The notes under the pieces were generated by a model. It was not told the DNA's origin. It was given only the letters and a program-made list of their open reading frames with translations, and did not search any database. From contig NZ_WIND01000004.1 of the NCBI RefSeq assembly GCF_009697225.1, forward strand, positions 1-64,000: 64,000 bases of DNA. The letters are read 5' to 3'. This document shows, one piece after another, positions 43,827 through 46,703 of the stretch (position 1 is its first letter; each line of letters starts with the position of its first letter). A program made the translations under genes and the position numbers. The DNA comes from Halovulum marinum. GTDB lineage: Bacteria > Pseudomonadota > Alphaproteobacteria > Rhodobacterales > Rhodobacteraceae.

Positions 43827-45266
43827 TTAACTCGGCATTTGCACGGGAAGGTTGTTTCCCAGGGCGCCGCGCGCCGCGTCGGGGGCGACCTCCAGCGCGC
43901 CGCGCGGCCAGACCACCTCGACGATCGCGCCACTGGGCCGAGCCCGGTCCGCGGCCGCGCCGCCGGCATCCGGCGGCGCGTCGGCGCCGGTGCCGGTGCC
44001 GGTGCCGTTGGTGAAGGTCAGCCGCGCCCCGGTGCGCTCCAGCAGGGTCTTGGCGATGAACAGGCCAAGCCCCATGCCGGCATAGCCGGGCCGTTCGGCG
44101 TCGCTCGGGCCGCGCCCGCCGCGGCGGCGCAGGAACGGATCGCCGATCCGGCCCAGCAGGTCGGGCGGATAGCCGCGGCCGTCGTCGCCGACACGCAGGA
44201 TCAGCTGCTCGTCGCTCCAGTCCAGATCGATCCACACCGTCGCGCGGGCGAAATCCACCGCGTTCTGCACCAGGTTGCGCACCCCGTGCAGCACCTCGGA
44301 ACGGCGCGCCAGCACCGGTTGCGCGGCCGGCGGCGGCCCCGGCTCGCCGCGCACCCGCAGGATCACCCGCTTGCCGCGCTCGACATGCGGCTCGGCCGCC
44401 TCCTCGACCAGCGCCGAGAACGGCGCGTGACGCACATGCAGGTCGTCCTTCCCCGAGCGCCCCATCGCCGCCAGGATGTCGCGGCAGCGTACCGCCTGCG
44501 CGCGGATCAGCGCCACGTCCTCGGCCAGTTCCGGGCGGTCCTCAAGCTCGTCGGCCAGCTCGGTCGATACCAGCATGATCGTCGCCAGCGGCGTGCCCAG
44601 CTCGTGCGCCGCGGCGGCGACCATGCCGCCCAGCGCGGTCAGCTTCTGCTCGCGCTCCAGCGCCAGCTGGGTCGCGGTCAGCGCCTCGGACATCGAATAG
44701 GTCTCGGTCGACACCAGCCGGGCATAGACGCCGATGAAGATGATCGACAGCGACAGCGCCGCCCAGGAGCCGACCAGCAGCAGCGGCGGCACCTGCAGCG
44801 CCTGCCCGTCGGCCAGCGTCAGCGGCAGGTGGAACACCGACAGGAACGCCACCGCCGCCAGGCTGAGCGCGCCCAGGATCAGCGTCGCGCCCAGCGTGAG
44901 CACGGTGGCCGAGATGATCGTCTGCGCCAGGATCAGCGTCGCGAACGGGTTCGAGATGCCCCCGGTCAGGTACAGCAGCGCGGTCAGCTGCGCCAGATCG
45001 TACAGCAGCGTCAGCAGCGCCGCGCGCTGGTTCAGCCGCGCGTTCGCCGGCTGCACCAGACTGGCGCCGACGTTGAACGCCGCCGACAGCCCGATCAGCA
45101 GCAGGCACCGGTCCAGCGGCAGCGCGATGTCCAGGTGCCAGGCCGCCACCAGCACCGCCGTCGCCTGCCCGGCCACCGCCAGCCAGCGCAGGTAGATCAG
45201 CGTCCGCAGCCGCACCCAGTTGGTGCGCGCGGGGCCGCCGCCCAGCAACCTGTCGAGATACTCCAT
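43827..45266 (-). CDS. regB: redox-sensing histidine kinase RegB/PrrB/ActS
   Basis: 479 residues. Six transmembrane segments (about 25-185) with the quinone-sensing GGISNPF at 102-108. The H-box AAAHELGTPLATI places the phosphorylated His at 221. Cys261 in VRCRDIL corresponds to the redox-active Cys of the family. N, G1 and G2 boxes (NLVQNAVDFARA, VGDDGRG, GMGLGLFIAKT) follow. It should control respiratory and carbon/nitrogen metabolism genes through RegA. It is divergent from a degraded senC, and regA is missing from the locus. A GTGTGTG stretch near the C-terminus is encoded by a hexamer repeat. Confidence 0.95.
   Translation of the reverse strand: MEYLDRLLGGGPARTNWVRLRTLIYLRWLAVAGQATAVLVAAWHLDIALPLDRCLLLIGLSAAFNVGASLVQPANARLNQRAALLTLLYDLAQLTALLYLTGGISNPFATLILAQTIISATVLTLGATLILGALSLAAVAFLSVFHLPLTLADGQALQVPPLLLVGSWAALSLSIIFIGVYARLVSTETYSMSEALTATQLALEREQKLTALGGMVAAAAHELGTPLATIMLVSTELADELEDRPELAEDVALIRAQAVRCRDILAAMGRSGKDDLHVRHAPFSALVEEAAEPHVERGKRVILRVRGEPGPPPAAQPVLARRSEVLHGVRNLVQNAVDFARATVWIDLDWSDEQLILRVGDDGRGYPPDLLGRIGDPFLRRRGGRGPSDAERPGYAGMGLGLFIAKTLLERTGARLTFTNGTGTGTGADAPPDAGGAAADRARPSGAIVEVVWPRGALEVAPDAARGALGNNLPVQMPS
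43989..44006 (-). repeat. GGTGCC hexamer triplet inside regB
   Basis: Three tandem copies of GGTGCC encode a Gly-Thr dipeptide repeat in RegB (NGTGTGTGAD). It is the same hexamer family as the array at 7419-7466. Confidence 0.85.
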
Positions 45267-45360
45267 GCCCCGGTCTTATCCCGGCCCCGAGCGTGACAAA
45301 ACAGCAATCTTTCCCCTGCGCCGGCGCCCGCGCGATACCACCACGCAAGGGAGGACGCGC

Positions 45361-45941
45361 ATGACGCGCACATTGGCTCTGGCCGCCGGCGCCGCGCTGG
45401 CGGCGCTGCTGGCCGGGACCGCGGCGGTGATCTGGCTGCTGCCGCCGAGCGCGCGCTTCGCCGGATGCGGCGGCGGCCGGGCGGCCGGCGGCAGCGCCAC
45501 CGTCGGCGGCCCGTTCACCCTGCTGGACCAGACCGGCACGCAGGTCATCGACGCCGACGCGATCCAGGGCCTGACGCCGATCTGTTTCGGCTACACCTTC
45601 TGCCCCGACATCCGCCCGTTCGACGTCGCCCGCAACGCCGCGGCGACCGACCTGCTGGAGCGGCGCGGCATCGAGGTCACCCCGGTGATGATCACCGTCG
45701 ATCCCGAACGCGACACGCCGCAGGTGATGGCCCGGCACACCGGGTACATGCACCCGCCGATGATCGGCCTGACCGGCCCGGACGGGCAGGTCGGGGCCGG
45801 CAGGTCCGCGTATCGCACGATCACACCACGCCGGCCTGCCCGGTCGCGCCGGACGAGGGCGTGCCGAGCTTCGTCCGCCGCGACATGCCGGCCGAGGAGA
45901 TGGCCGACGCGGTCGCCCGCTGCGCGCGCAACCTCCGACGG
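45361..45941 (+). pseudogene. senC: degraded senC/prrC (SCO family), frameshifted
   Basis: The frame starting at ATG 45361 shows a signal anchor, then GYTFCPDI and DVARNAAATDLLERRGIEV and TVDPERDTPQVMA, typical of SenC/PrrC copper chaperones. At about 45818 homology switches to another frame, where DHTTPACPVAPDEGV and RRDMPAEEMADAVA continue the protein; roughly a dozen residues between them are missing. The second Cys of the copper-binding CPDxC motif is Arg (codon at 45613-45615). The second frame runs without a stop into the convergent SDR gene, so the normal 3' end is gone. Divergent from regB as in Rhodobacterales. Confidence 0.85.
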
Positions 45942-46703
45942 TCAGGCGCTCAGCCCGATCCGCTGCCGGATCGCCGCATCGCGCAGCGACACGTCGGTGC
46001 CGGCGAATTCGGCGGCGTCGTCGGTGGCCAGCCAGACCAGCGCCCGCGCCGGCCACTCGGCGGGAATGTGCACCGACGGGTCCAGCTGGCTGACCGGATT
46101 GATCCCCGAGGCGCGGATCTTCACCTGCATGTCGGTCGCCACGGTGCCGGGCGACAGGCCGACCACGCGCACGTCGCCCTGCGCCTCGCGGTCGGCGCAC
46201 TGCGTCAGCATCGCCGCCGCCGCCTTGGCCGCGCAATAGTGGCTCCAGCCCTCCAGCGGGCTGTTCGCAGCGCCGGACGACAGGTTGATCACCACGCCGG
46301 ACCCCTGCGTCTGCATCACCGGCAGGGCGGCGCGCAGCCCGTGGTAGGTGCCCTTGAAGTTGATGTCGGTGGCATGGGTCCAGGCGGCGGGATCGGAGCG
46401 GCCGAGCGGGCCGATCGGCTCGATCACGCCGGCGTTGTTCACGAACACGTCCAGCCGGCCCCATTCGCGGCGCGCGGTCTCGACCAGGGCCCGGACATCG
46501 GCCCAGACCGCGACGTCGGCGGCCTGGGCAATGGCGCTGCCGCCGGCCTTGCGGATCTCGCCGGCGATGGTCTCGATCGCCGCGGCGCTGCGCGCGGACA
46601 GCAGGACGTGCGCGCCTGCCTTGGCGAACGCCCGCGCGGCCGCGGCGCCGATGCCGCGGCTGGCGCCGGTGATGATGACGGCCTTGCCGGCGAGTTCTGA
46701 CAT
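45942..46703 (-). CDS. short-chain dehydrogenase/reductase
   Basis: 253 residues. The NAD(P)-binding TGASRGIG, NNAGV and the catalytic Ser...YCAAK (SSGAAN...YxxxK) are visible. The substrate is unknown. It runs convergently against the broken senC, occupying the place where regA would normally lie. The stop is at 45942-45944. Confidence 0.92.
   Translation of the reverse strand: MSELAGKAVIITGASRGIGAAAARAFAKAGAHVLLSARSAAAIETIAGEIRKAGGSAIAQAADVAVWADVRALVETARREWGRLDVFVNNAGVIEPIGPLGRSDPAAWTHATDINFKGTYHGLRAALPVMQTQGSGVVINLSSGAANSPLEGWSHYCAAKAAAAMLTQCADREAQGDVRVVGLSPGTVATDMQVKIRASGINPVSQLDPSVHIPAEWPARALVWLATDDAAEFAGTDVSLRDAAIRQRIGLSA

What the first reader, a model, noticed from the sequence alone, without database searches (positions are those of the whole stretch)
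45361..46703. Degraded senC beside an intact regB, with regA missing
In Rhodobacterales regB is normally divergent from senC-regA. Here regB looks complete with all redox residues, but senC has a frame switch at about 45818, an internal loss of about a dozen residues, Cys-to-Arg in the copper motif, and no proper 3' end. An SDR gene on the opposite strand lies where regA should be. The RegBA system may be rewired or its regulator may have moved. This may bear on respiratory control in this lineage.
Basis: partly seen in the sequence, partly recalled or inferred. Interest (0 to 1): 0.7.

Follow-up and report, generated by a model that had tools for sequence, protein, structure and literature searches.

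The report
Decayed senC, intact RegB, relocated RegA
A copper-delivery gene (senC) beside an intact redox-sensor gene has decayed in this bacterium, the gene for its known partner copper carrier is missing too, and the sensor's regulator is not lost but sits elsewhere in the genome, as in close relatives.

Summary
The sequence observation holds; 'regA missing' does not. RegB (43827-45266, -) is intact. senC (45361 to about 45935, +) is a pseudogene: its copper motif reads CPDIR, it is 40 nt shorter than in G061 at 45817/45818 (one event gives both the frame switch and the lost residues), and it has no stop where relatives stop. Four relatives carry intact senC. RegA is intact on contig C3 (91239-91757; 322 bits, cut-off 250). 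regA is also apart from regB-senC in both same-genus genomes and in G001, and the SDR is beside an intact senC in G061 and Oceanibium, so both features predate the decay. Beyond the finding: this genome lacks PCuAC (PccA), SenC's partner copper chaperone, found in 61 of 63 family genomes searched; the other one lacking it also lacks RegA and RegB. The matching site lies inside a contig with the gene gone. Three other SCO genes remain (two of a type not found in three relatives), with five heme-copper oxidases against two. Most likely the SenC-PccA relay was abandoned while RegB-RegA still works in trans. Function is untested.

The parts
43827..45266 (-). regB, redox-responsive sensor histidine kinase, 479 aa, intact
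   Evidence: NF045988 624.2 bits (cut-off 570), NF033792 542 bits (cut-off 350); conserved motifs present
45267..45360 (.). divergent regB/senC intergenic region, 94 bp
   Evidence: between the two start codons
45361..45816 (+). senC pseudogene, 5' part in the original frame; second Cys of the CxxxC copper motif is Arg (CGC at 45613)
   Evidence: PF02630 95 bits, positions 1-106 of 134; alignment with four intact relatives
45817..45818 (+). deletion junction: 2 nt here where G061 and Oceanibium have 42; frameshift
   Evidence: nucleotide alignment, coordinates, lengths in relatives
45819..45935 (+). senC pseudogene, 3' part in another frame (DHTTPACPVAPDEG...ARCARNL); the codon at the place of the relatives' stop (45936) reads CGA
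45942..46703 (-). intact SDR-family oxidoreductase, 253 aa; also beside senC in G061 (79% identity) and in Oceanibium sediminis (67%)
   Evidence: PF00106 180.6 bits

Best explanation
senC here is a real pseudogene under relaxed constraint, in a lineage whose regA was already apart from regB-senC. RegB and RegA remain a normal redox two-component pair, encoded at two sites and acting in trans (inferred; both proteins are intact, pairing untested). SenC is a periplasmic copper chaperone that works with PccA (PCuAC) to load cytochrome oxidases, and both arms of that relay are gone in this genome: senC by point changes and a 40-nt deletion, pccA by absence of its gene and two neighbours from the matching site (shown). 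The oxidases most likely get copper through the other SCO proteins, of which two (C4, C33) are of a type not found in three relatives, or the organism lives where copper is plentiful enough that SenC and PccA are dispensable (inferred).
For: Several separate lesions in senC. Codon-position-2 GC is 0.58 against 0.44-0.46 in four relatives; 21 of 70 columns invariant in those four are changed or deleted in the window; dN/dS to G061, G062 and Oceanibium is 0.65, 0.52 and 0.54 against 0.32-0.37 among those three. Other regB-linked senC genes are intact: of 112 regB loci, 98 pass the motif and length test and 4 more (read by eye from the same output) are full length with a variant letter at the His motif. 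Intact RegA, with the same divergent HI0933-like neighbour in G061, G062 and G001; in the window's genome that gene is 3.7 kb further off. PCuAC in 61 of 63 family genomes, not in the window's genome. A direct search with G061's PCuAC protein gave only one weak match, E 0.026, and that open frame is a D-lyxose isomerase (326 bits). The matching site on C15 lacks the PCuAC gene inside a contig. Three other SCO genes with CxxxC and a later His. SenC-PccA cooperation, failure of a CcoI-SenC fusion with SenC's two Cys changed, and rescue by added copper are reported in passages of PMC8475189.
Against: No reads were available, so the 40-nt difference rests on one assembly. The first 152 codons are still open and keep much SCO sequence, so decay is recent or a residual non-copper role is possible. 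G001, the most distant relative, has changed as many conserved senC columns as the window (35 against 32 of 105) with an intact gene, and the G061-G001 dN/dS is also 0.64. The pccA loss took two neighbour genes from that site, so it could be incidental. It is one genome: the joint loss is a single case. Whether ccoI, ccoA, cox11 and copZ are present was not tested.
Confidence: 0.75

Rival explanations
1. Sequencing or assembly error: senC is intact in the organism and the frame switch is an artefact.
For: Only one assembly of 74 contigs, no reads available.
Against: A net loss of 40 nt is not a typical indel error; a separate Cys-to-Arg change, loss of the stop position and a raised codon-position-2 GC (0.58 against 0.44-0.46) spread over the gene cannot come from one error. 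regB and the SDR on either side are uninterrupted.
Confidence: 0.05
2. The first-frame product (292 codons, 45361-46236) is a repurposed membrane-anchored protein without copper binding, still used, for example as a thiol or signalling partner of RegB.
For: The frame stays open for 292 codons, and the N-terminal segment and FGYTFCPD are kept.
Against: One Cys of the CxxxC pair is gone, the His region is out of frame, the tail is read antisense through the SDR gene, and constraint looks reduced.
Confidence: 0.08
3. RegBA has been rewired: RegB works with another regulator because regA was lost from its place.
For: regA is unlinked in this genus and in G001.
Against: An intact RegA over the curated cut-off exists, about 91-92% identical to the RegA of the two same-genus genomes, with the conserved Cys and the HTH segment unchanged. 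Unlinked pairs also occur in G054 (regA apart) and G015 (regB apart).
Confidence: 0.05
4. senC decay and PCuAC loss are two unrelated accidents tolerated because SCO genes are redundant.
For: Three other SCO genes; the DUF3833 and DUF305 genes beside PCuAC in G061 are missing from the same site.
Against: PCuAC is otherwise nearly universal in the family sample (61 of 63), and a broken regB-linked senC was seen only here among the 103 assessable loci.
Confidence: 0.3

Closest known systems
regB / senC-regA locus of Rhodobacter capsulatus (prrB / prrC-prrA of R. sphaeroides; gene order recalled and as seen in most loci)
   Same: regB divergent from senC, intact RegB of the curated RegB family, intact RegA of the ActR/PrrA family
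   Different: regA lies on another contig and senC is a pseudogene; [quoted passage not shown]
SenC-PccA copper relay for cbb3 oxidase of R. capsulatus (passages of PMC8475189)
   Same: the organism keeps cbb3 oxidases (two ccoN) and carries a senC remnant
   Different: senC broken and no PCuAC gene found; other SCO proteins remain
Bacteria with several Sco proteins (Paracoccus ScoA/ScoB, Caulobacter Sco1/Sco2; passages of PMC12617631)
   Same: several SCO proteins with possibly divided tasks
   Different: here the RegB-linked copy is lost and no PCuAC remains, while both of those have PCuAC proteins

Membership tests
SCO1/SenC copper chaperone (functional member) | CxxxC copper motif | tested here: not met
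   CPDIR, CGC at 45613
SCO1/SenC copper chaperone (functional member) | conserved His (D-H) in the same reading frame | tested here: not met
   DHT is present only in another frame, after the deletion
SCO1/SenC copper chaperone (functional member) | SCO1-SenC domain by sequence | tested here: met
   PF02630 95 bits but only positions 1-106 of 134: a remnant of the family, not a working member
RegB/PrrB/ActS histidine kinase | score over the curated cut-off | tested here: met
   NF045988 624.2 against 570; NF033792 542 against 350
RegB/PrrB/ActS histidine kinase | H-box, quinone-site-like GGxxNPF, redox Cys (roles of these motifs recalled) | tested here: met
   of 80 named loci 74 gave a RegB frame by a selection that itself used HELGTP and GGxxNP (6 dropped), so the counts GGxxNPF 73 and AHELGTP 74 of 74 are partly built in; the Cys pattern RC[RK].IL is in 66 of 74
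RegB/PrrB/ActS histidine kinase | redox-controlled phosphorylation of RegA | not testable with these tools
   needs protein work
RegA/PrrA/ActR response regulator (G000:C3) | score over the curated cut-off, receiver domain, HTH, conserved Cys | tested here: met
   NF033791 322.3 against 250; PF00072 71.2 bits; ELCDRN and HTH segment (the Cys is named in PMC9147068)
PCuAC (PccA) present in the genome | PF04314 match | tested here: not met
   0 matches from 2 candidates; protein search best E 0.026, which is a D-lyxose isomerase; matching site without the gene

The most novel reading that the evidence does not exclude
This lineage has naturally replaced the SenC-PccA copper relay: SCO proteins of a type not found in three relatives (C4, C33), gained along with extra heme-copper oxidases, took over copper loading of the oxidases, so the RegB-linked senC decayed and PCuAC was dropped. 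Together with the clade-wide split of regA from regB-senC, copper delivery has become uncoupled from the redox regulator locus.
Probability: 0.35. Interest if true: 0.55.

Novelty: new variant of a known kind. Interest (0 to 1): 0.4.

Why it matters
It offers a natural test of what SenC and PccA are for. If an organism with two cbb3-type and three CtaD-like oxidases can lose both chaperones, then other SCO proteins or a bypass can load copper; PMC8475189 (passage) calls the high-copper bypass of SenC unknown. It also shows RegB and RegA staying intact when unlinked from each other and from senC, against the printed rule that one of them is always cotranscribed with senC (PMC9147068, passage).

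Tried and rejected
Rejected: regA lost (intact copy found); the SDR as a recent replacement of regA (it is beside an intact senC in G061 and Oceanibium); frame switch and residue loss as separate lesions (one 40-nt difference); the weak PCuAC match at C33:186581 as a divergent PCuAC (the open frame is a D-lyxose isomerase, 326.3 bits); a recent duplicate of senC as backup (the closest paralogue is about 41% identical over 148 residues).

Led nowhere: a paper search for senC with pseudogene and regA gave 251 papers, of which the 10 listed were off topic by title; a search on Prr names and synteny gave 10 papers, none a gene-order survey by title; the 2004 RegB/RegA review is not held. NCBIfam gave no family for the first-frame read-through of senC at E 0.001 or for the C4 and C33 SCO proteins at E 1e-60. 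The regular expression missed five of the eleven SCO proteins intended (senC of G061, G062, G001 and Oceanibium, and a weak G061 match), so that comparison holds six; the relatives' senC proteins were compared. The weak second SCO match of G061 (22.5 bits, under the cut-off of 22.8) was not examined.

Full report
What is at the site. The window is part of a 4.63-Mb genome in 74 contigs (G000, contig C44). regB (43827-45266, -) is intact and scores 624.2 bits with the curated RegB model, cut-off 570. After a 94-bp gap senC starts at 45361 on the + strand. Its first frame matches the SCO1-SenC domain only over positions 1-106 of 134. The copper motif reads CPDIR, with CGC (Arg) at 45613 where all four relatives compared have Cys. 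Between TATCGC (45811) and GATCAC (45819) there are 2 nt where G061 and Oceanibium have 42, a net difference of 40 nt. The remainder, with the D-H that carries the third copper ligand in intact SCO proteins (role recalled), continues in another frame. At the place of the relatives' stop the window has CGA (45936), and the first frame runs on to a stop at 46237. The SDR gene at 45942-46703 (-) is intact.

Is it decay rather than error? senC of G061, G062, G001 and Oceanibium sediminis is intact. Of 70 columns invariant in these four, 21 are changed or deleted in the window. Codon-position-2 GC is 0.581 in the window and 0.439-0.464 in the four; dN/dS of the window to G061, G062 and Oceanibium is 0.646, 0.523 and 0.535 (to G001 0.592), against 0.315-0.370 among the first three. 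For regB the window's values to those three are 0.404, 0.270 and 0.460, and among them 0.169-0.409. Against this: G001, the most distant, changed 35 of 105 columns conserved in the other three while the window changed 32 of the same 105, and G061-G001 senC has dN/dS 0.639, so the rate alone would not prove decay. The lesions do. As a control, of 112 regB loci (some genomes counted twice through two collections), 98 have a senC that passes a motif and length test. Four more (L024, L070, L072, L078) are full length with a variant letter at the His motif, read by eye from the same output. One (L108) is cut by a contig end, the window's is broken, and eight have no senC hit. Of those eight, L073, L074 and L101 hold too little sequence upstream; L008 is G015, which has senC beside regA elsewhere; L051, L053, L091 and L118 show none. 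So the window's is the only broken copy among 103 assessable ones.

Where regA is. A whole-genome search with the curated RegA model found one match over its cut-off: C3:91239-91757, 322.3 bits against 250; the other 24 matches were under it. The protein is about 91-92% identical to RegA of G061 and G062 and 84% to that of G001. It keeps ELCDRN and the HTH segment unchanged; the Cys there is the one reported to form a copper-stimulated disulfide in R. capsulatus (PMC9147068, passages seen). In G061, G062 and G001 regA is divergent from a gene whose G000 copy is HI0933-like (Pfam); in G000 the same gene lies 3.7 kb from regA with other DNA between. This fits one move before these lineages parted. 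No regA lies in the 13.4-kb Oceanibium locus. In a sample of 60 other genomes of the family, 55 have both genes (at E 1e-40); 51 have them within about 3 kb on one contig. Of the other four, G001 and G054 have regA apart, G015 has regB apart, and G019 is cut by contig ends (coordinates compared by eye). Separation is therefore uncommon but not unique to this clade. The SDR is beside senC in G061 and in Oceanibium, so it did not take regA's place in this species; it has no match in the stretches held for G062 and G001, so its history within the clade is not simple and no tree was made.

A second missing part. SenC works with PccA, a PCuAC protein, in bringing copper to cbb3 oxidase at low copper; loss of senC nearly abolishes and loss of pccA reduces the activity, and added copper rescues both (PMC8475189, passages; also PMC5829832 and PMC12617631, passages). 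The PCuAC family is found in 61 of 63 genomes searched. The two without are the window's genome and G059, which also has no RegA or RegB match; four others without RegA and RegB do have PCuAC. A search of the window's genome with G061's PCuAC protein gave one weak match, E 0.026, in an open frame that is a D-lyxose isomerase (326.3 bits). In G061 the order is yidC, a PP-loop gene (ttcA by eye), DUF3833, PCuAC, DUF305, then the rnpA region; G062 has DUF3833-like and PCuAC-like matches at the matching place. In G000 the same outer neighbours lie on C15 with the PP-loop gene and the rnpA region about 430 bp apart and those three genes absent, inside a contig. This is not an assembly gap at that site.

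What might stand in. The genome has three other SCO genes, each with CxxxC and a later His. The C7 copy is most like the single extra copies in G062 and G001 (57% and 54% identity). The C4 and C33 copies have no such counterpart among the SCO matches of G061, G062 and G001, where the only unexamined one is a 22.5-bit match in G061, under the cut-off. C4 lies among a DUF411 protein, a cytochrome c and a redoxin; C33 beside a MerR regulator and near a cation efflux gene. The genome has five COX1 genes against two in each of the three relatives: two ccoN, two CtaD over the cut-off, and one just under it (664.4 against 670.75). The extra SCO and oxidase genes are not adjacent in the stretches seen.

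Interpretation. Shown: senC is broken in this assembly, no PCuAC gene was found, and RegB and RegA are intact and unlinked. By parsimony: the unlinking is older than the decay. Inferred: RegB-RegA still work as a pair; the copper relay was given up because other SCO proteins or ample copper made it unnecessary. With one genome, joint loss is a single case and could be coincidence. [quoted passage not shown] In this clade regB is divergent from senC and regA is elsewhere, so that rule does not hold on gene order. The paper searches (15 of 27 rows listed; 3 of 3; 12 of 55; 10 of 251; 10 of 10) listed no paper that by title or abstract start describes this loss; most listed papers were not opened.

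Noticed in passing
G000:C15, L183:7669-8099: The DUF3833, PCuAC and DUF305 genes present at this place in G061 are absent between the rnpA region and the PP-loop (ttcA-like) gene.
   Followed up: yes
G000:C33, L152:1291-3894: An 868-aa open frame whose residues 62-564 match CtaD, long enough for a subunit I-III fusion; a second CtaD-like gene lies about 5 kb away in the opposite orientation.
   Followed up: partly
G000:C20, L160:6970-10403: A second ccoN-ccoO-ccoP set, apart from the ccoN on C44 at about 226 kb; three relatives have only two COX1 matches each in all.
   Followed up: partly
G013:C1:1156594-1157936 and G023:C18:52173-53522: regB matches in two pieces in G013 and with one TGA inside in G023: possible broken regB genes in other genera, near RegA matches without stops.
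   Followed up: no
G000:C3, L125:8055-8900: A 282-aa open frame with no Pfam match sits between regA and its conserved neighbour gene in the window's genome, with no match in the stretches of three relatives.
   Followed up: partly
L051, L053, L091, L118: regB loci with 6 kb upstream but no senC hit; L053 and L118 have regA directly beside regB, L051 and L091 have neither.
   Followed up: no
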